Notes under the pieces: model-generated
What the model was told of the DNA's origin: nothing
What the model saw: only the letters and a program-made list of their open reading frames with translations
Databases searched by the model: none
Part shown: piece by piece, positions 1-23,600 of the stretch
Numbering within the stretch: position 1 is the stretch's first letter
Layout: every line of letters starts with the position of its first letter
Translations under genes and position numbers: made by a program
NCBI GenBank assembly: GCA_002964805.2
Contig: PUDQ02000002.1
Coordinates: 1 to 64,000 of the forward strand
Origin: Trametes villosa
Lineage: Eukaryota; Basidiomycota; Agaricomycetes; Polyporales; Polyporaceae
Direction: 5' to 3'
DNA: 64,000 nucleotides

Positions 1-594
1 AGGAAGATGGTCGACTCCGAGTCCGGTTTCTCCTCAAGCTCCAGGCCAACCTTCGCGCTCACGAAGTCGCGAATGTTGCGGAGGGTGCGCACTTGAGCGG
101 CGAATGCGTCTGTGACGCCACCCGACTCAAGTGTCACGTACTGCACAGCAGCCGACGCCGAACAATCACTTAATCGTGCATATGTGAGTGACGCGTCGGC
201 GATACTAGCGTGGTCGCACTCACCGGTCCCAGTTACCCAACGGAGTGACGTTGAAGTCACCCAGGAACCCCTGCAGGACAACGACGACGAGTTCCGCGGA
301 ACCCCGTTTCTCCTTCGGCAGCATCAGCGAGCGGTAGATCAAGTGCCTGCGGCCCAGCGATGTCTCCTCGTCGTCGTCCTGCTGCGCTATGGTGGCCCAG
401 TCGCATATCCCCTCGAAGGTCTCGGGGATGTACTGGTACGTGTCGGTGACCTGCAGGTCGAACAAGCCTGATGAAGCTCGCCCTAGACCCGCCGGCCAAA
501 TGGCAGGGACAATGGTGCGATTAGCTGCCAGGATGCGAGGTAAGTGGATGAAAAGGACGACGACAACAGTCAACTGACCGGTGACAACGGACAT
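1..594 (-). CDS. Gene E, left-arm copy (cut by window edge)
   Basis: This is the mirror of 10671-11264. Exon 1 is 594 to 224, an intron covers 169-223, and part of exon 2 lies at 1-168. The rest is outside the window. The product is not recognised; see the right-arm copy for the full reading. It runs divergently from gene F, with about 190 bp between the two start codons. Whether this copy is complete or stops at the palindrome's outer edge cannot be decided here. Confidence 0.6.
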
Positions 595-784
595 GTAGAG
601 CAACAGGGAGAATACAGCCGCGAGTCGCGCTGCGCAGAGGACTTCTGCCTAAATAACCGACGAGCGACGCGCTCTGGGCGATCTGGCTACCCGTATTCCG
701 CCCACTAGATCGCCGATCTTTGCACAAGACGTGTCGTCCCCCCCTTAAGGTGCGTGAACCGCGGGGTTTGCACCCATAATCGTC
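595..784. promoter_or_regulatory. Shared divergent promoter between E and F (left arm)
   Basis: About 190 bp separate the start codons of gene E (minus) and gene F (plus), so both promoters must lie here or overlap the genes. No TATA box or known operator is clear. The same interval recurs at 10481-10670 in the right arm. The role is inferred from gene layout only. Confidence 0.4.
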
Positions 785-1522
785 ATGTCATCCCTCAGCG
801 ACACTACGGAAACCGAGGAATCTGCAATACAAGTTCCTATCTACGTTCACTTGCCGCCTATCGAGGCGACGGGGAATAGGGTACGGCAATAACAGCGTCT
901 AAACTGATTTGCTCGGTGCACTAACCGTTTTTCAGCGGCAATTACTCCTCACCGTCGACGTGCAGCGGTCCGCCAACGACCGTACCGAGATCGGCGTTGT
1001 ATGGGACGAGATTTCCCTGCCGCAACCCTACCAGCCCGCTCCGCTGCTGCCACGCGCGTCGTTCCCTGTGCTGCCAGGAGTGCAAGTCTTCGTTCCCCGG
1101 AACGCCCTCTTCTCTCCGGTGTTTCTCGTTGTCTCGCAAATCGATCGCTTCCGCTTGCCCGTAAGTCATGCCCTGGAATATAGCGGCACCCCCTAACAAA
1201 TCCCTGACAGGCACGTCTTCTGATTGCTGTCAGCATAACGCCGTCAGCTGAGGACCACGAGAACACCGTCAGCGTCGAAATCGACGCCCGGTATCTGCCG
1301 GAGCAGCGTCGCGGGCGCGTTCGGTTGGATTTGATCCAAGCATTGCGCAACTCCGCCCCGGAACTGACCTTCCACTACGACGACGCAGCCGTTCTCCTCA
1401 GGACTTTGCAGCAGCTGTCTCAATCGACGTCTCGCGGCGAGCCGGCCCCCGAACCCGAGCTCGCTCCTCACGGCAACGCCGAACCCGACTCGGAGACCGA
1501 GGTGGAGGCGCTCCTGTTCTAG
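785..1522 (+). CDS. Gene F: unrecognised protein of the F/G/J family
   Basis: I read three exons: 785-880, 936-1160 and 1211-1522, giving about 210 aa. Introns are 55 and 50 nt, both GT..AG in phase 0; the second has a CCCTAAC branch-like motif. Exon 1 starts MSSLSDTTETEESAI and ends in a strand-like PIYVHLP. Exon 2 (exactly 75 codons) carries the signature FVPRNALFSP. Exon 3 has ARLLIAVSIT and a Glu/Pro-rich tail. Gene G downstream has the same layout, and a decayed copy (J) lies at about 14,050. No signal peptide, membrane segment or enzyme motif is visible and the function is unknown. The conserved exon phases in two paralogues argue that it is real and coding. Confidence 0.72.
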
Positions 1523-1638
1523 ATAGCCACCCGCCTAGCCACTCCGGAGAATGACACCGTTCATTGCTGCGACCCCTGATGAAAACACTGCATATACCGA
1601 CCACTGCAGTTACCTGTTTCGCGCTCCGCTCACGAATT

Positions 1639-2202
1639 ATGCCGCGGTCACGCGAACGTCCCCGCGTTTCCATTCCGCTTCAAGTCAAACTGCCGCGAGG
1701 GCCGAACTCCACAGACGAGGTCCGTGCCTTGCCGTGACTTCGAGAATCGTGCTAATATGCTCCACATAGCGAGACCTCGACATTGTCGTGACCGCGACTA
1801 GAGTCGCGCGACACCACACGTCAGTCTCGGCGACGTGCGAAGTCATCCCATCCTTACACGCACCGGACACCCGAGCGGGGACAACAACGGTTCCCTCGCC
1901 CATGATCGCCGGAGTGCAATACTTCCTTCCGCGGAACGCCCTGCTCTCACCGATCTACATCACCGTGGCTCGAATCGGACATTCCACAATGCGAGTATGT
2001 AGACCACTGTCCCGTGTTGAACCGGCAAACTCACATTGGGCAGCGCCGCGCTCTCATCAGAATAACAGTGCAACAATGCATCCCGGGAGATGAGACGTCC
2101 ATTCGCCTGCGGCTGTACGCTGTAAAGTTGAGGCGACCTCGCCGGTGCGGGTTTACAATAGACGATCCTGTAGACTCGCTTTCGGCTAGCCCGATCGTTT
2201 GA
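1639..2202 (+). CDS. Gene G: shorter paralogue of gene F
   Basis: Three exons, 1639-1719, 1770-1994 and 2044-2202, give about 154 aa. The introns are 50 and 49 nt; the first contains GCTAAT ahead of CACATAG. Exon 2 is 225 nt, the same length as in gene F, and carries FLPRNALLSP where F has FVPRNALFSP. Exon 3 has RRALIRITV where F has ARLLIAVSI. The protein lacks F's Glu/Pro-rich C-terminal tail. It lies 116 bp downstream of F on the same strand, as expected for a tandem duplication that has since diverged. Function unknown. Confidence 0.7.
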
Positions 2203-2369
2203 AAACAAGACATCTCCTTTCCCTCTTGGCTGCCCTGACCCCATCTCGCTGCCCTGCTGACATACAGCCCCCCGACGTCAGCTGCGATCGTACGCGCAAA
2301 GTGCACCAAACAATCCGTCCGCCTCGAACGACACACGCGAGCCCAGTCTTGCGCTCGTCGCCTCCCACC

Positions 2370-3218
2370 ATGGCCCGTCTCACATCGCACTTCTACCTCT
2401 TCGCGCACAACGCACGCCTTCCGGAGGTCCGCCCCAGTACGTTCTGTACTGCTACTACTTAGAACCCCCCATTGACGAAGACACTTCGTTCAGGGCGCAT
2501 TGCACAGGGGTACCCGGACGAAGGAGACGGCGTGCAGTACACGCACCACAACCGATCCGCTATCATGGCCGTCGTGAACACTGTCCCTTATCTAGGGATG
2601 CCGGCTTTGTTCCCAATCTTGCCAGAGCTACTCGCGGTATGTGCTCCGCATACAACGAGGAACGGGATTAACTTACACTTCACAGCCTGAGAACGGCGGA
2701 GTCTACCACAACGCTCTAGCGGACATCCAACCTGACCTCCGCGTACTCTTCATCTGGGAAGAACTACACATCGCGCACCGCCTCGCCCACCACAACGCGA
2801 GACACGCCGTACACTTGCAGATCTTCTGTGAGGCGCCGCACAGCGCCGGTCTACTAGCGGTCGTTCTGCTTCGTCTGTTGGATCACGCCGCTCGGAACGC
2901 TAGACCTTCACGCTTTCCGAAGCTGAAGGACTTGCAGTACTCCATCACGCCGTCCGCCGTCTACGCCAGCGCCTACTTCACCGGGTTCGAACGATCGTAC
3001 AACATTGCCTCAGCGTTCGCTGCCGTGCAACAATACTTCACGTTCACGCCCGAGGGAGATCGGGAGTTCCCACTCACCACATGGCCGGACAACCGTCGCG
3101 ATATCGCTGCAACGGACAACGTCCTCGACTGCTATGCTACTGTGAAGTAAGTCCGCACGCCCAGGACTGCGAAACGCTCATTGACATACTCGCCGACAGG
3201 GCTCTCGCTGACGTATAA
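2370..3218 (+). CDS. Gene A: four-exon member of the A/B/C/D family
   Basis: Exons 2370-2436, 2494-2636, 2686-3146 and 3200-3218 give 229 aa. Introns are 57, 49 and 53 nt, with phases 1, 0 and 2. The start MARLTSHFYLFAHN matches its paralogues (xxFYLFA). Exon 2 carries GYPDEGDG and ends in LPELLA, exon 3 begins PENGGVY and ends with FPLTTWP and a short tail, and the tiny last exon encodes ALADV. No signal peptide, transmembrane helix or catalytic motif is apparent, and the family is not one I recognise. It is the first of three tandem copies in the arm. Confidence 0.8.
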
Positions 3219-3585
3219 GATCAATTTGTGGAATAGCGCGAGGGCGGTAAACGGCGTAGTCTACGTATGCATTTGTCAATAAACGAGATCGTCGGTGCTC
3301 TGTGTGCTTCGCGTCTGAGTCCGGGAACCCACCCCGCCGCCGGTCGCCTTCCGGGCGTCGAGCTGTACCTGTCTCTCTATGAGGGCGAGATGCACGCTCG
3401 GTGGAACCAGACCCGTTCGGAACCTCTGCCTGTTCCTCAGGACGGCACCGCATGCCGAGAGATACGTTCCGAGGACCCCTATGAGGAACACCACGTGAAA
3501 GAGATCTGCATACTTGAGCAGCGTGGGGGCAGGGTCTGAGGAGACGACGACTCCCCCCTCCCGCCGTCGCCCCTTGTCCACCGAA
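3219..3585. other. Gap between genes A and B
   Basis: The 367 bp between the two tandem paralogues contain no exon I can support. The interval presumably holds the 3' end of A and the promoter of B. It recurs as the mirror interval 7680-8046. Confidence 0.5.
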
Positions 3586-4449
3586 ATGTCCGCACGCATC
3601 TCACGCTTCTACCTCTTCGCCGGCAATCCTCGCGCCCCCCGCGGCGAACTTCGTAAGTGGTGGCATACGCACACTCCGTACAGCCGCTCACTGCCCGCAG
3701 GGCGCAGGGCCGAGGGTTTCCCGGACGAAGGAAACGGTATTCACTTTAACTACGACAACCGCGCCGCTATCATCAGTGTGGTGAACACAGTTTGGAAGCT
3801 GGGCTTACCCGCGCTGTTCCCCGTGCTTCCCGAACTGCTTGCGGTATGTCTCCTGTTTCACTGAGCGTCTTGGTTCTCACGTCTTCCCCAGCCCGACAAC
3901 GGAGGCTTCTACGACGTCAACTTGGGAGACGGTATCCCCGACCCGCGAGCGCTGCTGATGTGGGAAGTCTTGGACCTGCACGATCGCGTGGCCCACGGGC
4001 ATGCGACGTACGCCGTCCATTTCTTCATCTTCAGCAGCGGGACAGAGGTCGCAAAGGACCTCGCCTCCCTCCTCCTGCGCCTCGTGCGTGATGGAACTCA
4101 GGCTTCCATCGACCCGAACGACCCGAACGGCGCACCGCGTCGCTTCGCGAAGCTTACCGACCTGGTCTACTTCATGCGCCCTGGTTGCGTGTCCGGGTCA
4201 GCCTTTCTCTGCGGTATGAAGTATGCGTACGCGGAGGCACGGGCGTTCGCGAACGAGCATCCCGAATACACGGCTGAGTTGAAGGAACCGGAGCTCCCTC
4301 TGACCACCTGGCCGCCCGAGTGTCTTGCGTACACGCAACCTAACCTGGTCTGCAATGTGTACGAGACGGTTCTGTGAGTGCCTCTTTGCGTGTATCGCGC
4401 TGTGCTATCAGCTCACCGCGACTACAGCGCCCTCGCTCGCGTATTCTAA
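3586..4449 (+). CDS. Gene B: four-exon member of the A/B/C/D family
   Basis: Exons 3586-3652, 3701-3843, 3892-4373 and 4428-4449 give 237 aa. Exons 1 and 2 are 67 and 143 nt, identical in length to genes A, C and D, and the intron phases (1, 0, 2) are also the same. Motifs include ISRFYLFAGN at the start, EGFPDEGNG in exon 2, PDNGGFYD at the start of exon 3, LPLTTWP near the end, and a last exon encoding ALARVF. Exon 3 has a MWEVLDLHDRVAHGHATYAV stretch with counterparts in A and C, probably helical. Function unknown. Confidence 0.8.
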
Positions 4450-4690
4450 CGGTGACTGCGGAAGTCCGAGCGTTGTTGTATTGTATTCCTGTATGATCGC
4501 GAGTGGCTGACTGACGAATACATGTCTTGTACACTGCGCGTGTGAGGCTAAAGCGTGAGCGATTGCCGGTCGGCGGTCACAGATCCCCTGAGGACGAGTG
4601 GCACGTGTGATGTTGTCCTTGTGTACTCAGACCTCAACACGGTAGAAAAGCATCGAGGGAGGAGAGCGTGTGCCGCCCAGCGACACTCCC

Positions 4691-5576
4691 ATGAGCGCTT
4701 ATACTTCGCACTTCTACCTCTTCGCGTCGGACGCCCACTCCGACGCAGGTCGCCTTCGTACGTTATTCTGCTCCAGCTGCTATAATATCTGTGTATCTCA
4801 GCCATTTCAGGGCGCATAGCTGAAAACTTCCCTGCCGAAGAAGATGGGGTGCGCTACACATACGCGAACCGACCGGCGATCCTCACTATCGTGAACATGG
4901 TGAGCGAGGTGGGAAGGGGCGCTATGTTTCCGCTGCTACCCGCACTCCTGGCTGTACGTTTGTTTGAGGGGTTCGACGAAACATTTTTGACACTCTGCGC
5001 AGCCGAACAACGGTGGCCTCTACAACTACCACCCTTGCGATGACCCGCAGGGGGCTTACTACGGCGACCGCGCAGAAGCTGTCCTGTTGTGGGACGTGCT
5101 CGACGACAGCGGACGAATCGCGCACAACGACGCGGCTCATGCGATCCACTTCCGTCTTTTCACCGAACATCCATTCTGCGCTGCGCATCTGGCAGTATTT
5201 CTACTCCATCTCGTCGAGCACGGCACTCGAAGGTCCGTTGAAGCCAACACGGAATCACATAATGCGCCTGCCTCCGCGGTGTTGAAAGATCTCGTATACT
5301 TCATACGACCGGACGGTGTTTGGGGGACAGCGTATATGGCGGGTATGGAACACGCGTACGCGGAGGCGCAGGCCTGGGGGGAAAAGGACGCCTACTACAC
5401 GTTCGGTTACAAGCTTCCCCGAACACTGTCCATCACGACTTCGCCGGAACCTTACAGAGCATACGCCGGGTTCGGTACCGTCTTGTATTGCGTCCAGATT
5501 GCCAAGTAAGTGACTTGCAGCCTCGAGAACCAACTCCTCACTGACCTCTCTGCACAGGGCCCTAGAACGCGTTTAA
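4691..5576 (+). CDS. Gene C: four-exon member of the A/B/C/D family, at the palindrome centre
   Basis: Exons 4691-4757, 4811-4953, 5003-5505 and 5558-5576 give 243 aa, with the family's standard exon sizes (67, 143, ..., 19 nt) and phases. Motifs are TSHFYLFASD, NFPAEEDG, PNNGGLYN, LSITTSP (where the others have L/F-P-L/I-TTWP) and a last exon ALERV. The stop codon TAA is at 5574-5576, only 11 nt from the inner edge of the palindrome, so the breakpoint barely spared the gene. C and its mirror copy converge on the spacer with almost no private 3' sequence, so their transcripts would probably read into the spacer or the opposite copy. Confidence 0.8.
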
Positions 5577-5587
5577 AAGTGGGGGAG

Positions 5588-5677
5588 ACATCGAGTCACT
5601 GTCTGCGTGTCTCAAACGCACCCCGGTGCACCGGTGGCGGGCTATGCCGCTCGTCGGCGCTACAGAGTTATTACGTC
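5588..5677. repeat. Palindrome spacer with an 84-nt copy of the Helitron upstream region
   Basis: The arms are separated by 90 nt. Bases 5588-5671 are identical, in the same orientation, to 23820-23903, which lies upstream of the Helitron replicase. The last 6 nt (5672-5677, tacgtc) match neither that copy nor the other arm. The shared segment contains a perfect 12-nt palindrome, ccggtgcaccgg, at 5623-5634, almost exactly at the symmetry axis (5632.5). No gene is present. Confidence 0.95.
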
Positions 5678-5688
5678 CTCCCCCACTT

Positions 5689-6574
5689 TTAAACGCGTTC
5701 TAGGGCCCTGTGCAGAGAGGTCAGTGAGGAGTTGGTTCTCGAGGCTGCAAGTCACTTACTTGGCAATCTGGACGCAATACAAGACGGTACCGAACCCGGC
5801 GTATGCTCTGTAAGGTTCCGGCGAAGTCGTGATGGACAGTGTTCGGGGAAGCTTGTAACCGAACGTGTAGTAGGCGTCCTTTTCCCCCCAGGCCTGCGCC
5901 TCCGCGTACGCGTGTTCCATACCCGCCATATACGCTGTCCCCCAAACACCGTCCGGTCGTATGAAGTATACGAGATCTTTCAACACCGCGGAGGCAGGCG
6001 CATTATGTGATTCCGTGTTGGCTTCAACGGACCTTCGAGTGCCGTGCTCGACGAGATGGAGTAGAAATACTGCCAGATGCGCAGCGCAGAATGGATGTTC
6101 GGTGAAAAGACGGAAGTGGATCGCATGAGCCGCGTCGTTGTGCGCGATTCGTCCGCTGTCGTCGAGCACGTCCCACAACAGGACAGCTTCTGCGCGGTCG
6201 CCGTAGTAAGCCCCCTGCGGGTCATCGCAAGGGTGGTAGTTGTAGAGGCCACCGTTGTTCGGCTGCGCAGAGTGTCAAAAATGTTTCGTCGAACCCCTCA
6301 AACAAACGTACAGCCAGGAGTGCGGGTAGCAGCGGAAACATAGCGCCCCTTCCCACCTCGCTCACCATGTTCACGATAGTGAGGATCGCCGGTCGGTTCG
6401 CGTATGTGTAGCGCACCCCATCTTCTTCGGCAGGGAAGTTTTCAGCTATGCGCCCTGAAATGGCTGAGATACACAGATATTATAGCAGCTGGAGCAGAAT
6501 AACGTACGAAGGCGACCTGCGTCGGAGTGGGCGTCCGACGCGAAGAGGTAGAAGTGCGAAGTATAAGCGCTCAT
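5689..6574 (-). CDS. Gene C', right-arm copy of gene C
   Basis: Exact mirror of 4691-5576 with the same four exons (for example exon 1 at 6574-6508 and last exon at 5707-5689). The translation is identical to gene C. It converges on C across the spacer. Confidence 0.8.
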
Positions 6575-6815
6575 GGGAGTGTCGCTGGGCGGCACACGCT
6601 CTCCTCCCTCGATGCTTTTCTACCGTGTTGAGGTCTGAGTACACAAGGACAACATCACACGTGCCACTCGTCCTCAGGGGATCTGTGACCGCCGACCGGC
6701 AATCGCTCACGCTTTAGCCTCACACGCGCAGTGTACAAGACATGTATTCGTCAGTCAGCCACTCGCGATCATACAGGAATACAATACAACAACGCTCGGA
6801 CTTCCGCAGTCACCG

Positions 6816-7679
6816 TTAGAATACGCGAGCGAGGGCGCTGTAGTCGCGGTGAGCTGATAGCACAGCGCGATACACGCAAAGAGGCACTCACAGAACCGTC
6901 TCGTACACATTGCAGACCAGGTTAGGTTGCGTGTACGCAAGACACTCGGGCGGCCAGGTGGTCAGAGGGAGCTCCGGTTCCTTCAACTCAGCCGTGTATT
7001 CGGGATGCTCGTTCGCGAACGCCCGTGCCTCCGCGTACGCATACTTCATACCGCAGAGAAAGGCTGACCCGGACACGCAACCAGGGCGCATGAAGTAGAC
7101 CAGGTCGGTAAGCTTCGCGAAGCGACGCGGTGCGCCGTTCGGGTCGTTCGGGTCGATGGAAGCCTGAGTTCCATCACGCACGAGGCGCAGGAGGAGGGAG
7201 GCGAGGTCCTTTGCGACCTCTGTCCCGCTGCTGAAGATGAAGAAATGGACGGCGTACGTCGCATGCCCGTGGGCCACGCGATCGTGCAGGTCCAAGACTT
7301 CCCACATCAGCAGCGCTCGCGGGTCGGGGATACCGTCTCCCAAGTTGACGTCGTAGAAGCCTCCGTTGTCGGGCTGGGGAAGACGTGAGAACCAAGACGC
7401 TCAGTGAAACAGGAGACATACCGCAAGCAGTTCGGGAAGCACGGGGAACAGCGCGGGTAAGCCCAGCTTCCAAACTGTGTTCACCACACTGATGATAGCG
7501 GCGCGGTTGTCGTAGTTAAAGTGAATACCGTTTCCTTCGTCCGGGAAACCCTCGGCCCTGCGCCCTGCGGGCAGTGAGCGGCTGTACGGAGTGTGCGTAT
7601 GCCACCACTTACGAAGTTCGCCGCGGGGGGCGCGAGGATTGCCGGCGAAGAGGTAGAAGCGTGAGATGCGTGCGGACAT
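6816..7679 (-). CDS. Gene B', right-arm copy of gene B
   Basis: Exact mirror of 3586-4449; start codon at 7679, stop ending at 6816. The reading is identical to gene B, and I saw no difference between the copies in coding or intron sequence. Confidence 0.8.
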
Positions 7680-8046
7680 TTCGGTGGACAAGGGGCGACG
7701 GCGGGAGGGGGGAGTCGTCGTCTCCTCAGACCCTGCCCCCACGCTGCTCAAGTATGCAGATCTCTTTCACGTGGTGTTCCTCATAGGGGTCCTCGGAACG
7801 TATCTCTCGGCATGCGGTGCCGTCCTGAGGAACAGGCAGAGGTTCCGAACGGGTCTGGTTCCACCGAGCGTGCATCTCGCCCTCATAGAGAGACAGGTAC
7901 AGCTCGACGCCCGGAAGGCGACCGGCGGCGGGGTGGGTTCCCGGACTCAGACGCGAAGCACACAGAGCACCGACGATCTCGTTTATTGACAAATGCATAC
8001 GTAGACTACGCCGTTTACCGCCCTCGCGCTATTCCACAAATTGATC

Positions 8047-8895
8047 TTATACGTCAGCGAGAGCCCTGTCGGCGAGTATGTCAATGAGCGTTTCGCAGTC
8101 CTGGGCGTGCGGACTTACTTCACAGTAGCATAGCAGTCGAGGACGTTGTCCGTTGCAGCGATATCGCGACGGTTGTCCGGCCATGTGGTGAGTGGGAACT
8201 CCCGATCTCCCTCGGGCGTGAACGTGAAGTATTGTTGCACGGCAGCGAACGCTGAGGCAATGTTGTACGATCGTTCGAACCCGGTGAAGTAGGCGCTGGC
8301 GTAGACGGCGGATGGCGTGATGGAGTACTGCAAGTCCTTCAGCTTCGGAAAGCGTGAAGGTCTAGCGTTCCGAGCGGCGTGATCCAACAGACGAAGCAGA
8401 ACGACCGCTAGTAGACCGGCGCTGTGCGGCGCCTCACAGAAGATCTGCAAGTGTACGGCGTGTCTCGCGTTGTGGTGGGCGAGGCGGTGCGCGATGTGTA
8501 GTTCTTCCCAGATGAAGAGTACGCGGAGGTCAGGTTGGATGTCCGCTAGAGCGTTGTGGTAGACTCCGCCGTTCTCAGGCTGTGAAGTGTAAGTTAATCC
8601 CGTTCCTCGTTGTATGCGGAGCACATACCGCGAGTAGCTCTGGCAAGATTGGGAACAAAGCCGGCATCCCTAGATAAGGGACAGTGTTCACGACGGCCAT
8701 GATAGCGGATCGGTTGTGGTGCGTGTACTGCACGCCGTCTCCTTCGTCCGGGTACCCCTGTGCAATGCGCCCTGAACGAAGTGTCTTCGTCAATGGGGGG
8801 TTCTAAGTAGTAGCAGTACAGAACGTACTGGGGCGGACCTCCGGAAGGCGTGCGTTGTGCGCGAAGAGGTAGAAGTGCGATGTGAGACGGGCCAT
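8047..8895 (-). CDS. Gene A', right-arm copy of gene A
   Basis: Exact mirror of 2370-3218; start codon at 8895, stop ending at 8047. The product is the same 229-aa family member. Confidence 0.8.
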
Positions 8896-9062
8896 GGTGG
8901 GAGGCGACGAGCGCAAGACTGGGCTCGCGTGTGTCGTTCGAGGCGGACGGATTGTTTGGTGCACTTTGCGCGTACGATCGCAGCTGACGTCGGGGGGCTG
9001 TATGTCAGCAGGGCAGCGAGATGGGGTCAGGGCAGCCAAGAGGGAAAGGAGATGTCTTGTTT

Positions 9063-9626
9063 TCAAACGATCGGGCTAGCCGAAAGCGAGTCTACAGGAT
9101 CGTCTATTGTAAACCCGCACCGGCGAGGTCGCCTCAACTTTACAGCGTACAGCCGCAGGCGAATGGACGTCTCATCTCCCGGGATGCATTGTTGCACTGT
9201 TATTCTGATGAGAGCGCGGCGCTGCCCAATGTGAGTTTGCCGGTTCAACACGGGACAGTGGTCTACATACTCGCATTGTGGAATGTCCGATTCGAGCCAC
9301 GGTGATGTAGATCGGTGAGAGCAGGGCGTTCCGCGGAAGGAAGTATTGCACTCCGGCGATCATGGGCGAGGGAACCGTTGTTGTCCCCGCTCGGGTGTCC
9401 GGTGCGTGTAAGGATGGGATGACTTCGCACGTCGCCGAGACTGACGTGTGGTGTCGCGCGACTCTAGTCGCGGTCACGACAATGTCGAGGTCTCGCTATG
9501 TGGAGCATATTAGCACGATTCTCGAAGTCACGGCAAGGCACGGACCTCGTCTGTGGAGTTCGGCCCTCGCGGCAGTTTGACTTGAAGCGGAATGGAAACG
9601 CGGGGACGTTCGCGTGACCGCGGCAT
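9063..9626 (-). CDS. Gene G', right-arm copy of gene G
   Basis: Exact mirror of 1639-2202 with the same three exons and the FLPRNALLSP signature; start codon at 9626. Confidence 0.7.
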
Positions 9627-9742
9627 AATTCGTGAGCGGAGCGCGAAACAGGTAACTGCAGTGGTCGGTATATGCAGTGTTTTCATCAGGGGTCGCAGCA
9701 ATGAACGGTGTCATTCTCCGGAGTGGCTAGGCGGGTGGCTAT

Positions 9743-10480
9743 CTAGAACAGGAGCGCCTCCACCTCGGTCTCCGAGTCGGGTTCGGCGTTGCCGTGAGGA
9801 GCGAGCTCGGGTTCGGGGGCCGGCTCGCCGCGAGACGTCGATTGAGACAGCTGCTGCAAAGTCCTGAGGAGAACGGCTGCGTCGTCGTAGTGGAAGGTCA
9901 GTTCCGGGGCGGAGTTGCGCAATGCTTGGATCAAATCCAACCGAACGCGCCCGCGACGCTGCTCCGGCAGATACCGGGCGTCGATTTCGACGCTGACGGT
10001 GTTCTCGTGGTCCTCAGCTGACGGCGTTATGCTGACAGCAATCAGAAGACGTGCCTGTCAGGGATTTGTTAGGGGGTGCCGCTATATTCCAGGGCATGAC
10101 TTACGGGCAAGCGGAAGCGATCGATTTGCGAGACAACGAGAAACACCGGAGAGAAGAGGGCGTTCCGGGGAACGAAGACTTGCACTCCTGGCAGCACAGG
10201 GAACGACGCGCGTGGCAGCAGCGGAGCGGGCTGGTAGGGTTGCGGCAGGGAAATCTCGTCCCATACAACGCCGATCTCGGTACGGTCGTTGGCGGACCGC
10301 TGCACGTCGACGGTGAGGAGTAATTGCCGCTGAAAAACGGTTAGTGCACCGAGCAAATCAGTTTAGACGCTGTTATTGCCGTACCCTATTCCCCGTCGCC
10401 TCGATAGGCGGCAAGTGAACGTAGATAGGAACTTGTATTGCAGATTCCTCGGTTTCCGTAGTGTCGCTGAGGGATGACAT
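9743..10480 (-). CDS. Gene F', right-arm copy of gene F
   Basis: Exact mirror of 785-1522; start codon at 10480, stop ending at 9743. The product is the same 210-aa protein with FVPRNALFSP. It is divergent from gene E across about 190 bp. Confidence 0.72.
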
Positions 10481-10670
10481 GACGATTATGGGTGCAAACC
10501 CCGCGGTTCACGCACCTTAAGGGGGGGACGACACGTCTTGTGCAAAGATCGGCGATCTAGTGGGCGGAATACGGGTAGCCAGATCGCCCAGAGCGCGTCG
10601 CTCGTCGGTTATTTAGGCAGAAGTCCTCTGCGCAGCGCGACTCGCGGCTGTATTCTCCCTGTTGCTCTAC

Positions 10671-11846
10671 ATGTCCGTTGTCACCGGTCAGTTGACTGTT
10701 GTCGTCGTCCTTTTCATCCACTTACCTCGCATCCTGGCAGCTAATCGCACCATTGTCCCTGCCATTTGGCCGGCGGGTCTAGGGCGAGCTTCATCAGGCT
10801 TGTTCGACCTGCAGGTCACCGACACGTACCAGTACATCCCCGAGACCTTCGAGGGGATATGCGACTGGGCCACCATAGCGCAGCAGGACGACGACGAGGA
10901 GACATCGCTGGGCCGCAGGCACTTGATCTACCGCTCGCTGATGCTGCCGAAGGAGAAACGGGGTTCCGCGGAACTCGTCGTCGTTGTCCTGCAGGGGTTC
11001 CTGGGTGACTTCAACGTCACTCCGTTGGGTAACTGGGACCGGTGAGTGCGACCACGCTAGTATCGCCGACGCGTCACTCACATATGCACGATTAAGTGAT
11101 TGTTCGGCGTCGGCTGCTGTGCAGTACGTGACACTTGAGTCGGGTGGCGTCACAGACGCATTCGCCGCTCAAGTGCGCACCCTCCGCAACATTCGCGACT
11201 TCGTGAGCGCGAAGGTTGGCCTGGAGCTTGAGGAGAAACCGGACTCGGAGTCGACCATCTTCCTTGAACGTCGTGTGTTCACAAAGGTCAGTGTGCGATA
11301 GTCGTAGTCGAGGCATTGCTCACCTCTTTCACACAGGTCCACGCCTCGGGTGATCAAGCACCTGAAGTACGTTTGGGCAACGCTTCCGATCCTGGCGGAC
11401 ACGCGCGTAAGATGTCCGCCAAGTGGCGTGTCGATCACCTCATCCCGACGGGCACACGCCGCGACAACAAGAACAGCATGCGCATCGCCCCGACGTCGCT
11501 GCGCCGAGGTGACTTTGTCGAGGTGTCGGCGTATGTCGACATCCAGCTTGTCCGTCGTCAGAGGAGGATCGGAACGATCATCAAGTTTGCTCTCATGGAG
11601 GTCGTTCGTTTGTGGCGGGCTCCTGAGGTCCGAGTGAGTCCTCAACCACATGCACGCGACATCCTCCGTCTTACCTGGTTGTGTGAACAGGAGCGGTTCG
11701 AACGCACGGACCTTACGGTGTCCGAGGATGTGCCGCACCTCCCGAAGGTGATCGCCATGCCGTCCATCTTCAGCATCGGGATGGACGATCTTGATGAGGA
11801 CGACGAAGGTAGGGGTGCGGCGGCAGGAGCTATGCAGGTCGAATGA
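10671..11846 (+). CDS. Gene E: unrecognised protein, divergent from F'
   Basis: My reading has four exons, 10671-11041, 11097-11286, 11337-11633 and 11691-11846, about 337 aa. Introns are 55, 50 and 57 nt and the phases fit; the first acceptor is AAG rather than CAG. A further in-frame 45-nt intron at 11367-11411 is possible. The N-terminus has a hydrophobic run (QLTVVVVLFIHLP), which could be a signal peptide but also resembles the beta-strand starts of F and G. Later segments include KWRVDHLIPTG and RRGDFVEVSAYVDIQ, and the C-terminal part is acidic (DDLDEDDEG). Function unknown. The first part lies inside the palindrome's right arm; the part past 11264 cannot be compared with the left arm. 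Confidence 0.65.
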
Positions 11847-12019
11847 GCGGGAATGCGCCGGTGTACTTGTAGTCGGTTCCATGTCTTGTGAATGTACGTC
11901 TTCGTTCTGTGAATGTACGATCTCCATCTGCGAAAAGACTGCAGTGTCCTATGTTGTTGCGTGCGCGAACGTAGCTCTTCAGCGCTCCCCTCCTGTGACG
12001 CGAACACGTCGTGTGACTC

Positions 12020-12398
12020 AGACCGGTACTCAGGCGTGGTAACTTTGCGCCTCCGCGTGTGCCCCACCAGTGAGGCGCGCGACGAGGGATGCAGCCGCGG
12101 GTTTGAAAGAGCCAGAACGCACGTTCCCTCTTCCTAGCCGGTGAGGAGAGGGCGGTAAGCTGCGCACGGTTCGTACGGGTGTTGCGCGCAATATGCTGTA
12201 AGCCCGACTAGGCATACGGGCTGGTACTCAGGCGCGGTAGCCTCCTGAGGGGCGCGAGGTCGTCTTGGTGGCAAGGGATGTAGCCGCGGGTCTGAAAGAG
12301 CCAGAGCTCGTGTTCGCTCTTCTTAGCCGGTGAGGGTAGGGCGGTAAGCTGCGCACGGTTCGTACGGGTGCCGCGCGCGAGGTGCTGTAAGCCCGACG
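12020..12398. repeat. Tandem duplication, unit about 189 bp
   Basis: Two diverged copies lie side by side: gggatgcagccgcggg at 12086 recurs as gggatgtagccgcggg at 12275, and the similarity runs from ggtactcaggcg to ctgtaagcccgac. A looser series of short blocks (gcgcgaggtga...gggcacgaac) follows to about 12,560. No open frame spans it. It lies between the end of E and the end of H. Confidence 0.8.
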
Positions 12399-12737
12399 AC
12401 GAACTGCAAATAGGCATACTGCTTCGCGTGTTGCGCGCGGCGCGAAGCACGCACGGACATGTACATGGGTACGCCGGAGTATGCTACGCGGATTGCGCGC
12501 GAGGTGAGGTAGGCACGAACAAGTAACGCGTGTTGCGCGCGAGGTGAATTGGGCACGAACGTGTACATGAGTACAGAGTGGTAAGATACGCTAGTTGTGC
12601 GAGATGTGAAGTGGGCACGGGGTGTACATTCATACGCGAGGAAGCTACGGTCGACAGTCCGCGCGCGCTGTCAAGCTAAACAAAGACAGCGTGAGCGTTG
12701 GTTGCCCTTCACAAACGAGGGTGGAACGGACTCACCA

Positions 12738-13918
12738 TCAAATCACGGCAGAAGACTCCGGGAGCGGCTCATCGAAAAGCTGTTCTCCCTCTACGACGAG
12801 GGCGATGCGAAGGAGGGAGAAGGAGGTCTTCCACGCAGTCCAGCGTTTCCCTTCGTTCAACTCCTTGTTCTTGTAGCGCCGCACGTAGCACTCGACAAGG
12901 ACGATGTCGGAGAAGTTGACGCGGTCCGCTGGGATCTTTGCGGCCTCGTCCCATCCTCGGAGGTCGCGGTCGACGGCGTTATACACCTCGTCGAACGTGT
13001 GCATAGTCCCTTGCTTCTTCTTCGGCAGCCACTTGTTGGCGAACGTGAGCGTCGCGCTCTTGCCCGGGACTGGTTGACGCGTTAGCGAGAACAGGCATAG
13101 CAGATCGGAGACATCGACTCACAGGCCTCCGGCTTGCACCGCGTGAAGGCGTTGTACTTCGCGGCCTTCTCGTCGAGTTCGCACAACAGTTGAAGGCCAA
13201 CGGAGAACTGCTCGTCGTGCGTCAGCTGGAGTGTCCGCACGATGCCGACCATCCACACAACGAGGGGCTTGGTCCTGTAGCAGAGTAGATGTTCAGTCGG
13301 GGAGAAGCGTCCATCGGGCGCATCCCCCCATGTGGCGGTAGCGGGAAGATACCCGATGCCGTAGCGGTTGAAATCAGGCTCGCGGAAGGAGTGGAGACGC
13401 TCCAAGCGGCTGTGGAAGCGCGTGAGTGTAAGACACAGTTGCGACGCAGTGCAGTTCAGTCGACGTACGCAATAGCGCTATCTTCGACGTAAGGAGGGAG
13501 ATCTAACACGGGAGGGGGACTCTGCATTTCGTGTAAGTGTACGAAGCGGCATATCAGTATGTATGCTACGTACCAAGTCATCGTCCTCGGCGGCAGTGTG
13601 CGCGACAACGGAGGCGGTGTTGTTGGCGTCGACGGGCCCGTCCACCGCGGGTTGCTGATCGCTATGGCGGAGGGTCAGCGACCGCAAAGACGGTGGAGTG
13701 ATGGGCAGGTATACGTATGGACGTTGCCTTGATTGAGGTCGTCGCTGGCGGTGGTCGTCGACGATGCGTTATCGGAAGATGGGGCAGCTTTCCTGTACCA
13801 GGCGTTCAGCGTTGGCGATGCACACAGAGAGGAAGTGCAATACGTACTTGGCACGCTTCGCCGGAGACGACTGAAGGTCGTCGGCCGCTCTCGTCTTGCG
13901 CGAAGAGGGTCCTACCAT
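12738..13918 (-). CDS. Gene H: six-exon conserved hypothetical protein
   Basis: Exons on the minus strand are 13918-13848, 13792-13715, 13661-13574, 13521-13469, 13409-13123 and 13069-12738. All phases close and give 302 aa, with introns of 52-59 nt. The start codon sits in a ccATGG context. The N-terminal ~95 residues are low-complexity, with a basic patch (KRAKK). The C-terminal half is well-ordered sequence including FSDIVLVECYVRRYK and WTAWKTSFSLLRIALVVEG. I have the impression of a family common in Polyporales proteomes but cannot name a domain. The strand and exon pattern differ from the F and A families, so it looks like an independent gene lodged between two members of the array. Confidence 0.78.
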
Positions 13919-14049
13919 GGCCATACAACGAAAGCGGTGAAGAGCGAGGAGGGTTCAAACACGAAGAGCGCAGTCGGAGGGGCGATAGCGGGCGTGGGGG
14001 CGGGCGTGGATGGACGCGGAGGGAAGTTCCGCTGAGTGTCGTGCCTCAG

Positions 14050-14400
14050 TCCACGACGCTTTTGATATCGCGGTCGCGGCGGCGTGTGCAAGAGGGGCAC
14101 CCCGAACGCTTGATCATTCTTCCGTGCCGTGGTGCCGTCAGGAGGTGGAGGAATGAAGGTCGTCGTCCGTATATAGGGGCGCTCTTGTCACCCATGGTCC
14201 GAGTGTTTCCTGTTCGGAATGCGTCAGGTTCGCCGTTCTCCAAGACCCGCACGATCTGCACTTACCCGCATTCGCCAGATCCGAGCGTATTATCTCGGGC
14301 CAGGCGGGGTGGGGCGCTTCGTGATCGTTTCTGTCTCGACCGCGGATGGGGAAGATGGCGGCATTCGTCTTTCGGTCGTGGCTCGCTTCCCTGAAGGCCA
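14050..14400 (+). pseudogene. J: decayed third copy of the F/G family
   Basis: After a CTCAG acceptor at 14049 the reading STTLLISRSRRRV... matches the start of F exon 2. It continues to FPVRNASGSP at about 14,190-14,220, where F has FVPRNALFSP. In another frame from about 14,310, GRFVIVSVST aligns with F exon 3 (ARLLIAVSIT). No GT donor is present where F's second intron starts (the site reads GA) and no matching first exon is found. I take it as a fragment or pseudogene. The flanks (13,919-14,049 and 14,401-14,910) hold no gene I can support. Confidence 0.55.
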
Positions 14401-14910
14401 GACTCGGGTCTGGGACGGTCTTCACGGACGTCCGCTGTGGGGAAAGTCGGCAGCCTGTCGTTCCGGGGGCTTCATGATGCAGATGCTATGTGCGGAGGGC
14501 GAGAAGTCGGAAGCGGGTCCAACTACAGCCGAACACCCTCGCGCGGAGGCTCACCAGCCTGCGATGGAGGACTGGAATTACCACGCCATTTTCGTGCGTC
14601 ATGGCGTCGTTCGGAAAGTGCGCACCCGCGCGAATTACGTGAATATGCGGAAGGGGGACGACGAAGCCGTGCGGGCGGTACTGACGCGGTACGTACATCG
14701 CACAGTGTCAATCGTGGTACAACTGACCAGTTCCCCGTCAGCCTCGTCGCGCGCGAAGGTGTAACCCTTGACGGTGCAGCACAACAGAAGAAACACGCGC
14801 GACCAGTTAGATTTCGTCCGGGGCGGAAGGAGTTGCTGGATTTAGCACGCAGTCGTCGTTGACATAGATTCGCACGTTCTCTCCATGTACGAATCGCCAG
14901 ATCATCCTGC

Positions 14911-15766
14911 CTACGCACGCGCGAGAGCGCTGTCGATGCTATGTGAGAATATAGACAGCGACGGAAAGCGGACCCTTACGTTGCATCATAGTAGCACCGT
15001 AAAACCTCTAGCTCCGCGACGAGGTCAGCTTGCACCGGCGGCCAAGTCGTGATAGGAAGTCCCGCGATAGGGTTGGCTTGGTACTGGGGGTACGACGGCT
15101 GGGAGGCCACGGCGTCCTCGTAAACGTCATCGATGTAGTCGTAGAAGGCGATGCCGTACGCGCGCCCGCTGCTGAGATGATACGCTAAGGCGCGCATCTG
15201 GGGCTGCTTATGAATGTCGAAGTCGTAATGCCGGGTGACGTAGGTTCGAATAGCGAGGTACGTGAAGCGGAGGAGGAAGAAAGCGAGGTGCACGACGCTG
15301 TACGGTCGACGAGAAGGAATGGCGAACATGATCGTGAACTGGGCGTGGTGACGGCGTCGCTGATACGGCGTCAGCTTGCGCCATATGATGAGTACTCGGG
15401 GATCCATGGCTGCCCGCGACAGCTCCATGTCGTAGATCCCGAATGTGTCTGGCTGCGGAGACCATCAGTGGCCGAATTATCAGTCTGTAAACAGGGATAT
15501 CATACCGCGAGACAGGCAGGCAGAGCGGGGAATGTTTCATTGACTCCTGCCTGAAATACGTTGTTGACATAGCTTCTGATGGTGATGCGCCATTCGCCGT
15601 TGTAGAACACATGCTCGCTTTCGTCAGGAAAACCTTCGCTGCGCCGTTCTACGGAAGGCGGTCAGTACGAATATGCTGTGGAATTCACGAATATCGCACG
15701 GTGCCTCTCGTACGCGGTATTGTGATCCCGCAAGAACAGGAAGAATTCCCTGGAGACGATGGCCAT
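14911..15766 (-). CDS. Gene D: diverged A/B/C/D family member outside the palindrome
   Basis: Exons on the minus strand are 15766-15700 (67 nt), 15648-15506 (143 nt), 15452-14980 (473 nt) and 14929-14911 (19 nt), giving 233 aa. Exon lengths 1, 2 and 4 and all phases equal those of A and C. The motifs are diverged but clear: REFFLFLRDH, EGFPDESEH, PDTFGIYD, LPITTWPP and a last exon ALARA. It is much more distant from A, B and C than they are from their mirror copies, so it is an older duplicate. It shows that the family predates the palindrome at this locus. Function unknown. Confidence 0.8.
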
Positions 15767-16146
15767 AGAGTAGGTATGCCGAAGGAAAGAGCGGTGCGTA
15801 CAAGTGTAGAGTTGGGCGGTCAAGGACGTCGGACGTTTCATTGTACGCGCGTGGACTTATTTGCGGGGAGCCGTTGTCCGGGATCGGCGGTGGGATCTGT
15901 GGTACAGGGGTTTGCGAGCTTGATCGAGGCGAGCCCCGTCTGCCGAACCTGTCGTCCCCGCGGGCGCTACCCCGTCTTCCGTATCGCGCGCGCGCAGGCC
16001 ATAGTGTCTGCAGCTGAACGTGTCATAGGTGAGCAGGCGGTCATGAAGACATAGTTCGGAGCAGGGAAGCGGGTACGGTGTCAAGCGCTGAGCGAGCGGG
16101 TCGTGGCACAGCGTTAGAGCGCCAAAAGTTATCCTCAGCGCTTAAA
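15767..16146. other. Gap between gene D and the Helitron
   Basis: No supported gene. It should contain the promoter of D. The Helitron's 3' end begins at 16147, and the base just outside (16146) is an A on the plus strand, that is a T after the element, as expected for an AT target. Confidence 0.5.
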
Positions 16147-16163
16147 TTAGGTTGTGCGGCCAA

Positions 16164-16179
16164 CGCGCGACCTCGCGCG
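16164..16179 (-). terminator. Helitron 3'-terminal hairpin
   Basis: The stem CGCGCG(A)/(T)CGCGCG with a 2-4 nt loop lies 13 nt inside the CTAA end at 16147-16150. Position and shape match the transposition terminator expected at Helitron 3' ends. The stop codon of the replicase lies about 45 nt to the right. Confidence 0.8.
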
Positions 16180-16224
16180 ACGAGGAGGTCCTCCGCGCAC
16201 ACATGGACCAACTTCACAGATCAC

Positions 16225-19200
16225 TCAAGTCTTTCTTCGCTTGGATGGCATTGAGGAGCTCGCATACTTCCGCTTCTTTGGAGACTGTGTTGTCGGCAAG
16301 CTTGCGCTTACATCTTTCTGTGAATCGTTCAACTGCTCGCGCGCACGGCGTGCGACACTGGGGTCTGTTTCCGTGCGATCGACGATCGTCTGCAGAGCCA
16401 ACTGTTGCAAACGGCTAGTTTCCCGCCTGAAATCTTGCGAAGCCCGACACGTAATTCGAGCTAAAGCGAATGGACGCAGAATGATCACTCCGCTTAGGCT
16501 CGTAGCTCGCGAGAGCATCACATATGGAGCCTCGGAACCCCGACAGCTCTCCAGGTCGATGATCACGCGTTCAAACGTCTGGCCCTGGGATTTATGGGAT
16601 GTAAGTGCAAACGCTGGCTGTATCGGCACTTGCGTTCGCTTAATGGTCAATCTTTTGCCAGAATGCGGATGGACGAACGTCATGTCCACCGTGTCTTCTA
16701 GCACGGGATACTGATCTCCGTCTAGACCGGTCATAGATTCCCCCAGGATGTTAGAGAGGCGCACAACACACGACGTAAGGAGACGGTGCCCTGTGGCCAC
16801 GTCTGTACGATACCGGATGTGGGTCAATGTTCCGATGCTTCCGTTGACGATCCCTCCGCTAACGTCGAAGTTTTGGCAGATTATGACCGGCATCCCCAAA
16901 ACTAGAGGTATTCTCCCTAAACGCTGATTTGTCTGACCGGAATGCAAGGACGTCAGGTGAGTTTGCAACGCTTCATCTGTGATACATTTGCCGCGATGGC
17001 GATCAACTGCGTAGTACCAGTGAAGCTCACGGCCGGTGTTGTGGGCAAATGCCTCAGCTGCTTTCACGTTTAGGGCATCCTTGGCCGCGTTGTCGTACAC
17101 TATGAGTGGTGCGTCATCCCATCCTTCCTCATTCAAAACGTTAGGATTGTTATCTAATACACGGCTTTGCAAAAGCTCATAATCTTCTGCAGTGCATTGT
17201 CCTACACGCAGGCGTGCCAACAGCTCGACGAAAGCAGTGTTTTCAGGTCCGTGTTGCCGCATTATCTGATGTAACATTACGACCGTGGTGAACGACAGCC
17301 ACAGCAGTTTTCCAGCGACGATGAGCTGCCCGCTATTGCGCGCCGAACTGCCTCTACTCTCCGTGTTGATCCACGCGTAGAGTCTGGTTTCGCCAACGGG
17401 CGGTAACTGAGCAAAATCTCCAGCTACAATCACGCTCATACCGCCGAATGGGTTGGTGTTTCCCTTTGCGTCGCACAGAGCTTCGCTGATTTGTGCTAAG
17501 AGCTTACATCCGACCATGGATATCTCGTCAATGAGCAGGTAGTCCACGCCCTCCCACATAGACGCCAAGTCGCCGCGAGTCTTGTTTCCTACAGTACGTC
17601 CAGCTTTTCTCTGATCGAGGCTGAGGGCGGAATGTAAAGTTACACCTCTGATATTACGCGCAGCGATACCAGTGTATGACGCCAACCGGAGGCGGCGGAC
17701 TTCGTTTTTCGCTTCGAAGTAAGCAGTTAAGGCTTGAATAACCCGAGACTTGCCCGTTCCTCCAAATCCACCTAGGTACATTCGCAAAGGATCAGGTCGC
17801 GAATCCATGGAATGTTCTGCAATAATGGTGAACGCCCGTGCTTGCTCACTGTTCAAGCGCCATTGGCGGATATGCGCCGGTATGTCCACCAAAATCGGCC
17901 TAGACGGAAAAATTGGTTCAGCAATGCGAATAGACGGTTCGCCTTCGGATAAGCTGTCTTGTGTTCTGATGACAGCAGCAGGAGCGTCTGTGCCTTCCTC
18001 GACTTGAGTACGAGTGGTCGTCGAAGTCGTGCCTTGAGATAGCAGGTTCTGCTTCCATCGCGTACGCCGAAGTTCGTACTCTGTCTTCCAGTGCGATTCT
18101 AATGTCCGTTCGGTACTAGAAGCCTGATCGACGTCCGTCGTCTGACCGACGCTACTCTGTTGGCTGACCTTGGTTCCGTGTCCCCTGAACAGTTGGCATC
18201 TCTCTGCGGTCGTCAAACAGTCCAAGACCCGAGCAGTCGCCTGCAACTTTCTCCCGTCGCGCGCGACGTCTACGGATTGTAAGTGATCCAGCATATCTTC
18301 CTGCGAAACGTCATTTTCAAGGTCGTTGAACGCAGGCACGCGGTCTGTCCGAGCAGAGGATGTGCGCACTGCACGCAGCTTTCGCCGCTTCTCACGATCG
18401 CGCATATGGTCATCTCGACTGTCCTTGCACTCGTGAGTGATCTGCATATTATCCATAACCTCTAAGTACTCAGGTTTGAGAGAATCCCTTTGTCTAACGA
18501 AGGCGTCCTGCCAGGTCTCGTCCACGCGCTTGAGATCAGCCACCTCGCGCCAGGGTACGAAGAACATCAGCATCAACCTGCAGTACCGTGCGTATTCGTT
18601 CTCGCGATCCTTACGCGGTAGACGAGGTCCAATAGGCACGGGAACGTGGCGCAAAGACTGCCGTAGGACCCTCAAGCCTTTCTTGCTACTCTCGCAATGC
18701 TCGTCCAAGAACGGGATGAGCATAACTCTGCGCCCGTCGTAAGTCAGTAAGTCGGTGAGCTCTCCGGTGTCGGGTACGGGTTCCGCCGAAGACTGACCTC
18801 TGTCTTCGTAATCGCAGTCTGAATCCTGTTCCGATGAGCTGTCGGAGACACCTTCGCGCTCCGCCTCGACATCTACGGCCTTCCGAACAAGCATGACTTT
18901 CTTAGTCTGGGCGATGAAATCCCACACTGAAATACGCTGTAGCTCCTCGCCTCTGTATACGTAGTCTGAAAGCTGATCCCCCAAAGGTATCACGCGTCCG
19001 CGCGGGTCAGTCGTGAACGCTACACTATCATCATTTTCAGGATCCTCGGGCTCGTCGTCTTCGTCAACCGAGATATCCTGTGGGTGGTCACACTCGTGAG
19101 AGCTCGAGTCCTCACCACCGACGTCTTCGATGTCGTTGTCGGTCGGTAGGGCAGTAGTTCCTGCATCGCTCTGTGCGACGTTCGCCAGTACGTCCATTTC

Positions 19201-23052: not shown

Positions 23053-23180
23053 TTCTGCCGTGGCCACCTTGTATATACTCCCGAGGCCATGGGAGGACGA
23101 TGCATGACTCCCATCGTCAGAAGAGGACTCAGTGCGCAACGCCGCTGAGCCGCCAGCGAGATATATGCCGTCTTGATCAC

Positions 23181-23600
23181 CTAAACGTCGAGTGTGAGCG
23201 CCGGGCGAGATGAAAAAGACAAGCACGTACGCGGAGTCGAGACAGGAGATGCGTCCCAGCTGTAGCCGACTGGGAAACGAACGTCGCGAGGTGGATCACG
23301 GACGAACGAGGGGCCCAAGGCGACGCCGGTGGCGGTGATCCAGTCCAAGCCAAGTAGCACGTCATGATCTCGAATGTAGGAGATGACGATAGGCTGAGAA
23401 GACGTGTAGTACCCAGAAGAGGTGGGGACGCGCAGTATTGCGCGAGAGGATATGACGATCTTGCTATTCTCGGTGGTGATAGTGCGAGGGAGGTTCGACG
23501 CCAGGGCAAACTGAGTGGAGATAGCTGAGCGAGGGAGAGAGCTGTCGAGCAGGACGGAGACGGTGTGCCCGTCGTATGAGCCGCACACACTGAGCACCAT
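23181..23600 (-). CDS. Retropepsin-like small protein in the Helitron leader
   Basis: About 139 aa from the ATG at 23600. The layout is that of a single-domain retropepsin: GHTVSVLLDSSLPRSAIS, where the catalytic D-S/T-G would lie, and later DHDVLLGLDWITATG, the usual hydrophobic-hydrophobic-G-x-DW element. The catalytic glycine position reads Ser (DSS), so activity is doubtful; it may be a structural or binding relic. The end overlaps the upstream open part of the replicase frame (up to 23226) in another frame, so a splice joining the two is conceivable. It lies between the leader repeat and the replicase, inside the inferred element. Confidence 0.6.
   Translation of the reverse strand: MVLSVCGSYDGHTVSVLLDSSLPRSAISTQFALASNLPRTITTENSKIVISSRAILRVPTSSGYYTSSQPIVISYIRDHDVLLGLDWITATGVALGPSFVRDPPRDVRFPVGYSWDASPVSTPRTCLSFSSRPALTLDV

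What the first reader, a model, noticed from the sequence alone, without database searches (positions are those of the whole stretch)
1..11264. Near-perfect palindrome with arms of at least 5.6 kb carrying six genes each
Every base and every translated gene I compared is mirrored with position sum 11,265, and I saw no mismatch. Such identity means very recent origin, continuing gene conversion between arms, or an assembly artefact. A palindrome of this size is unstable in most cells, so a natural one that keeps complete gene copies would be notable, comparable in form to ampliconic palindromes on animal sex chromosomes.
Basis: seen in the sequence. Interest (0 to 1): 0.92.

Follow-up and report, generated by a model that had tools for sequence, protein, structure and literature searches.

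The report
Inverted pair of identical fungal Helitrons
The palindrome looks like real DNA: it is the middle of two nearly identical 18-kilobase jumping genes (Helitrons) lying tail to tail in a fungal genome, cut off on the left only because the assembled contig ends there.

Summary
The palindrome is in the sequence: arms 1-5587 and 5678-11264, 90-nt spacer, one mismatch. It starts at base 1 of a 68-kb contig, so the contig end sets its outer edge. Both arms are 3' parts of one 18.2-kb autonomous Helitron of a Polyporales fungus. Right copy A runs 5678-23793 on the minus strand. Left copy B ends in an 84-nt 3' terminus (5588-5671); the last 6 spacer bases are host flank. B's 5' part is the start of contig C58: 7821 of 7821 bases identical, ending exactly at the element's 5' terminus. 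C58's flank and C2's right flank join into one reverse-transcriptase-like sequence that is uninterrupted in paralogs on C32 and C65. The whole palindrome should be about 36.3 kb with 18.1-kb arms; 4.7 kb of B is unassembled. A's own 84-nt terminus is missing from its place and sits, inverted, 26 nt beyond A's 5' end; an 18.1-kb flip of a formerly tandem Helitron explains this best (about 0.5). Ampliconic palindrome: not supported. Foldback artefact: unlikely, but no reads were available.

The parts
1..5587 (+). Helitron copy B, 3' part of the body (left arm); cut off by the contig end
   Evidence: Inverted repeat of 5678-11264; contig start
5588..5671 (+). U1: 84-nt 3' terminus of copy B (spacer)
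   Evidence: Exact copy of 23820-23903; its last ~42 nt are the shared 3' end of relatives on C56, C32, C44, C1 and C117 (seen only)
5672..5677 (.). Host flank TACGTC directly after copy B
   Evidence: Same as the host sequence at the C32 empty site and at 24808-24813
5678..23793 (-). Helitron copy A, 18,116 bp, lacking its last 84 nt at the 3' end; 5678-11264 is the right arm
   Evidence: Colinear blocks shared with the relative at C56:529971-550931, 66-69% (88% at the 5' end); 5' end fixed by C58 and other copies
16225..23226 (-). RepHel transposase ORF (2333 aa): DUF6570, Helitron_like_N, PIF1
   Evidence: Pfam; best relative 72% over residues 780-1280, Trametes sanguinea
15973..23793 (-). 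Stretch shared with C58:1-7821, read here as copy B's 5' part
   Evidence: 7821 of 7821 identical
23794..23819 (.). 26 nt between A's 5' end and the second U; no other copy in the genome at up to 3 mismatches
23820..23903 (+). U2: second exact copy of the 84-nt Helitron 3' terminus, in the orientation opposite to A
23904..24751 (.). 848 nt; no other copy listed in the assembly
   Evidence: best candidates only
24752..24801 (+). 50-nt mini-repeat that elsewhere is flanked by 9-bp target duplications
24802..24813 (+). GCCACATACGTC: second copy of the 12 host bases around the insertion site (the first is split by copy B)
24802..26386 (+). Interrupted host sequence: reverse-transcriptase-like, continuing C58's flank
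   Evidence: C58 flank plus C2 aligns through the joint to C32 (76%, 2140 columns) and C65 (66%, 1084 columns); right limit from the C32 match
5759..8669 (-). Three cargo genes of a ~150-aa family (5759-6274, 6891-7400, 8118-8669); mirrored in the left arm; a fourth at 14979-15464
   Evidence: Profile search, profile built from these window ORFs; dN below dS against C56 for 6891-7400, 8118-8669 and 14979-15464
9175..10362 (-). Two exons of a second small cargo family (9175-9495, 10072-10362); mirrored in the left arm

Best explanation
The palindrome is the inner part of a tail-to-tail inverted pair of almost identical 18.2-kb autonomous Helitrons (Helitron2-like ends). Copy B inserted cleanly between A and T of GCCACA|TACGTC in a reverse-transcriptase-like sequence; its 5' half is the start of contig C58. 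Copy A begins 6 nt further on, in the opposite orientation. Shown by sequence: element ends, B's clean insertion, the split locus, the gap. Inferred: that C58 and C2 are one locus and that B is colinear through the unassembled 4.7 kb, so that the full palindrome has 18,116-bp arms and a 90-nt spacer. Formation (inferred, about 0.5): a complete parent Helitron lay in the same orientation 32 nt downstream of B. Two breaks, 26 nt outside its 5' end and 84 nt inside its 3' end, freed its body, which was rejoined flipped with no base lost, turning a tandem pair into a palindrome and leaving the parent's own 3' terminus (U2) behind at 23820. It has no shown function as a palindrome; it is a by-product of Helitron activity.
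For: U1 = U2 exactly, 84 nt. The element ends are shared with relatives whose flanks differ. A relative of about 21 kb is colinear in blocks. C58:1-7821 is 100% identical and ends at the 5' terminus (its last 194 nt were already seen). B's middle is absent from the assembly; near-identical RepHel DNA is listed only on C2 and C58 and near-identical arm DNA only twice on C2, so each open half has one partner. Empty site: C58 flank joined to C2 gives one alignment through the joint to C32 and C65; the two C32 halves were found by separate searches. The 6 spacer bases after U1 equal the host bases expected after B. For the flip: A's inner end mirrors 5587 while U2 begins at the equivalent of 5588, so one break accounts for both joints without loss; both breaks lie close to element termini (toy chance 2e-5, 4 of 200,000 draws, post hoc).
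Against: No reads, depth or spanning molecules were available. 4,708 nt of B are not assembled. The C58-C2 link rests on paralogs at 66-76% identity; two RT copies hit at the same site are not formally excluded. The parent state needed for the flip (26 nt next to 848 nt) is found nowhere else. U2 is followed by A, not T, so the parent itself would not have sat in an A|T site if the element ends in TTAT as in B. Two breaks with clean rejoining are unusual. The 12-nt host duplication needs a further insertion event. Near-zero divergence could be flattened by consensus polishing.
Confidence: 0.8

Rival explanations
1. Artefact: a foldback or whole-genome-amplification chimera at a contig end produced the mirror image.
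For: The palindrome touches the contig end; the arms are almost identical; foldback reads, some with extra sequence between the halves, and amplification palindromes are documented (PMC12870357 passages; PMC6218980 abstract and outline).
Against: The centre lies at a Helitron 3' terminus plus six correct host bases. The spacer's 84 nt recur 18 kb away at the other joint. C58 holds the other half with the matching host flank. None of 6 other contig starts read over 10 kb (C3, C35, C44, C58, C86, C130; C58 belongs to this locus) shows an inverted repeat longer than 219 nt.
Confidence: 0.08
2. Formation by replication foldback: during rolling-circle copying the new strand switched near the 3' terminus to the complementary strand, copied back to the 5' terminus, ran off and re-entered at U. 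(Confidence given that the pair is real.)
For: A ends exactly at the 5' terminus; the switch lies at the 3' end region; one event makes an inverted copy.
Against: Does not explain the 26 nt, the 848 nt after U2 or the host duplication; the 6 host bases after U1 show that B's end had already joined host DNA.
Confidence: 0.2
3. Formation by two independent insertions in opposite orientation at one site, followed by deletion of the DNA between them, including A's 3' terminus. (Confidence given that the pair is real.)
For: Helitron self-insertion in opposite orientation followed by loss of inner termini has been proposed in Fusarium (PMC5148889 section 16). A's 5' joint has A before TTCCC, as at B.
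Against: Does not explain why the trimmed end (mirror of 5587) and the start of U2 (5588) are neighbouring bases of the same element.
Confidence: 0.2
4. Ampliconic palindrome kept by arm-to-arm gene conversion because its genes are useful.
For: Near-identity; cargo genes under constraint between elements.
Against: The whole repeat lies in one transposon with its own termini; constraint is seen between elements, not between arms; recent transposition suffices.
Confidence: 0.03

Closest known systems
Helitron2-like fungal Helitrons (FoHeli, Fusarium oxysporum; PMC5148889, passages and section 16 seen)
   Same: RepHel; asymmetric terminal inverted repeats with the 3' repeat 20-40 bp before the end; frequent at contig borders; opposite-orientation self-insertion proposed
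   Different: This element is 18.2 kb (relative 21 kb) with clusters of small cargo genes; a flipped neighbour with its 3' terminus left behind was not in the parts I saw; its FoHeli ends (TCAG..ATTTT, TGCCT..CTCCTGT) differ
HELPO1/HELPO2 of Pleurotus ostreatus (PMC4289320, passages and section 6 seen)
   Same: Basidiomycete Helitrons with RepHel, AT insertion, cargo genes, near-identical copies
   Different: Listed sizes up to 13.7 kb; CTRR or CTTG ends; no adjacent opposite-orientation pair of one family in the listed table (one copy sits in a 576-bp inverted repeat of a 37.2-kb region, another matter)
Head-to-tail tandem Helitron arrays (plants, bats; cited in PMC5876387, passages seen)
   Same: Adjacent copies at one site; the proposed state before the flip
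   Different: Here the copies are tail to tail

Membership tests
Helitron (autonomous) | RepHel protein with Helitron_like_N and PIF1 helicase | tested here: met
   PF14214 9.4e-35, PF05970 1e-25, one 2333-aa ORF
Helitron (autonomous) | Insertion between A and T without target duplication | tested here: met
   Met for copy B, the only copy with an empty site: GCCACA / TACGTC. Not general: the base after TTAT is T, G, C, T in the 4 relatives read (C56, C1, C32, C44) and A after U2
Helitron (autonomous) | 5' TC and 3' CTRR ends (canonical) | tested here: not met
   Ends read TTCCCGC... and ...(G/C)TTAT; a 1-nt shift in B gives TCCC...TTATT
Helitron (autonomous) | Hairpin near the 3' end | tested here: inconclusive
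   The 84 nt fold at -27.6 kcal/mol (RNA parameters) with a 6-bp hairpin ending 17 nt from the end; no shuffle control
Helitron2 / Helentron-like variant | Asymmetric terminal inverted repeats, the 3' one 20-40 nt inside | tested here: met
   CCCGCTACCGGT / ACCGGTGGCGGG, 11 of 12, 30 nt from the 3' end; 11 of 11 in the C56 relative
Helitron2 / Helentron-like variant | RepHel phylogenetic placement | not tested
   No tree built
Ampliconic palindrome | Arms of host DNA with host genes | tested here: not met
   The arms are transposon DNA, colinear in blocks with the C56 element
Foldback artefact | No molecule spans the centre with unique flanks | not testable with these tools
   No reads

The most novel reading that the evidence does not exclude
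Helitron-associated double-strand cutting close to both termini released an 18-kb body that was rejoined in reverse, turning a head-to-tail Helitron pair into a palindrome of about 36 kb: a footprint of an excision-type act by an element thought to move mainly by single-strand rolling circle. (Somatic excision footprints in maize are mentioned in PMC4289320, passage, so excision as such would not be new.)
Probability: 0.25. Interest if true: 0.6.

Novelty: new variant of a known kind. Interest (0 to 1): 0.42.

Why it matters
If the structure holds, it is a very young natural palindrome of about 36 kb made by Helitrons, with its joints readable to the base. It would test whether Helitrons can leave double-strand breaks near their ends, and it warns that contig-end palindromes can be transposon pairs rather than read artefacts. 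It also shows a large fungal Helitron family with conserved clusters of uncharacterised small genes.

Tried and rejected
Random foldback: rejected as the leading view by the Helitron terminus at the centre and by C58. Telomeric hairpin: the TTAGGG listing runs in contig order from C3 on, with none on C2, and the contig start is not telomeric. The arm end at 5678 as a transposon end of its own: 2 other near matches at 3 mismatches, against 2 in the reversed control. The right end near 24802 as a canonical CTRR Helitron end: dropped once five copies showed a 50-nt unit with 9-bp duplications (read by eye). Source of the 26 nt: none found. Function of the cargo: no Pfam hit for the ~150-aa family (4 members) or for five other cargo ORFs (a sixth, 23184-23705, upstream of RepHel, had only sub-threshold aspartyl-protease hits); no homolog at E<=0.001 for one member; a weak AlphaFold model (pLDDT 63.8); no PDB match at E<=0.001. 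Literature: titles and abstract starts listed (14 of 14 papers; 9 of 9; 20 of 28; 12 of 53; 6 of 6; 10 of 25; 12 of 14; 10 of 16) report no tail-to-tail pair of autonomous Helitrons; full texts were not read beyond the passages and sections cited.
Full report
The inverted repeat is there: 1-5587 against 5678-11264 with 90 nt between. One base differs, 8313 T against C. The window is the first 64,000 bases of contig C2 (68,051 bp) of a 46.7-Mb, 140-contig genome, so the left arm ends where the contig ends. The organism is a Polyporales fungus near Trametes, judged from a host RBR-type protein at 30396-32816, whose four best named relatives are Trametes pubescens, T. versicolor, T. polyzona and Pilatotrama ljubarskyi (59-61%; the top hit, 63%, is unnamed), and from RepHel (72% to T. 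sanguinea over residues 780-1280). The species is not known to me.

What the arms are. Beyond the right arm the sequence continues into a 2333-aa ORF with Helitron_like_N and PIF1 domains. A region on contig C56 (529971-550931, about 21 kb) is colinear in blocks of 66-69% from the small-gene cluster through the helicase ORF. Its two ends match two short stretches of the window: 23691-23794 (88%) and part of the spacer (93%). Relatives on C58, C56, C1 (two), C16 and C32 share the first end and then diverge (6 copies besides the window); relatives on C56, C1, C32 and C44 share the second (4 read), with more near the short copies on C1 and C16 and on C117. So the element's 5' end is at 23793 (minus strand) and its 3' end is an 84-nt piece I call U. 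An asymmetric inverted repeat (11 of 12 pairs, 30 nt from the 3' end; 11 of 11 in C56) is as described for Helitron2-type fungal elements (PMC5148889 passages). Canonical TC/CTRR ends are not met.

How the copies lie. Copy A is 5678-23793 on the minus strand, 18,116 bp, and lacks U at its 3' end. Copy B is the left arm followed by U (5588-5671), a correct 3' end on the plus strand. One search had shown 194 nt of C58 identical up to the 5' terminus; if C58 holds B's other half, that match should run on to base 1 of C58. It does: C58:1-7821 equals 15973-23793 at 7821 of 7821 bases and leaves the element exactly at its 5' end. The middle (11265-15972, 4,708 nt) occurs once in the assembly, in A. 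Near-identical helicase DNA is listed only on C2 and C58, and near-identical arm DNA only twice, both on C2. C58 and the left end of C2 are therefore most simply the two open ends of one copy.

The site. C58's flank and C2's right flank each matched C32 in separate searches, overlapping by 5 nt. Joined, they align through the joint to C32 over 2140 columns at 76% and to C65 over 1084 columns at 66%. With the join at 23904 instead of 24802 the alignment splits in two, so 24802 is the right edge. The host reads GCCACA|TACGTC. B sits between A and T, as Helitrons do (A|T insertion without duplication: PMC5876387 passages); relatives without a known empty site do not all show T after their end. 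The 6 bases between U1 and A, TACGTC, are host. At 24802 the host starts again with GCCACATACGTC, so 12 host bases occur on both sides of 5678-24801, the left set split by B.

How it may have formed. A's inner end is the mirror of 5587, and the second U starts at the equivalent of 5588: adjacent bases of one element. The simplest history that uses every piece is a complete parent Helitron lying in the same orientation as B, 32 nt downstream (TACGTC plus the 26 nt now at 23794-23819), whose body plus those 26 nt was turned around between two breaks with nothing lost. The breaks lie 26 nt outside the 5' end and 84 nt inside the 3' end; two breaks placed at random in the element fell that close in 4 of 200,000 draws (2e-5; a post hoc toy model). 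Against it: the parental arrangement was not found elsewhere, and U2 is followed by A rather than T. I hold the flip at about 0.5. A replication foldback and a deletion between opposite insertions remain possible.

Artefact. Foldback reads and amplification palindromes are real problems (PMC12870357 passages; PMC6218980 abstract and outline), and a 90-nt spacer would not exclude one. But they would not place the fold at a transposon terminus plus six correct host bases, nor produce C58. Without reads I keep about 0.08 for an artefact.

Cargo. Each arm holds three genes of a ~150-aa family and two exons of a second family, plus part of another conserved block; a fourth member of the first family is at 14979-15464 (the profile was built from window ORFs, and three C56 matches were new). 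For three family pairs against C56, dN is 0.31-0.36 and dS 1.4-2.9 (near saturation), so the proteins look constrained. No Pfam family, solved fold or homolog at threshold was found; only one member was used for the homolog search and the fold model was weak.

Verdict. A real sequence feature, best read as an inverted pair of very young Helitrons at a contig break; not an ampliconic gene palindrome. The pairing is inferred from assembly logic and paralogous empty sites, and needs reads.

Noticed in passing
window 24752-24801; C32:937048, C1:7377786, C102:247253, C110:225232, C99:291669, C99:24472: A 50-nt repeat (TGTATAGG...GGAGACTA). In all 5 copies read with flanks (of 6 seen outside the window) it is bounded by a 9-bp target duplication, one of them with one mismatch (read by eye); the window copy lacks one of its own. 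A complete-looking mobile unit of about 50 nt.
   Followed up: partly
window 5759-8669, 14979-15464; C56:530086-542280: A family of ~150-aa proteins encoded in large Helitrons, 4 in this element and 3 in its C56 relative, no known domain, apparently constrained.
   Followed up: partly
C58:8557-10000 and C131:23567-25010: Nearly identical stretch on two contigs ending 735 nt before the Helitron site, after which C131 goes on differently; perhaps another copy of the same retroelement.
   Followed up: no
window 8313 / 2952: The only difference between the arms is CG against TG; direction not known.
   Followed up: no
C32:932454-933255; near C1:2595987, C1:5691916, C16:56134: Short copies (about 0.8-0.9 kb) that carry both ends of this Helitron family, so likely non-autonomous members.
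   Followed up: no
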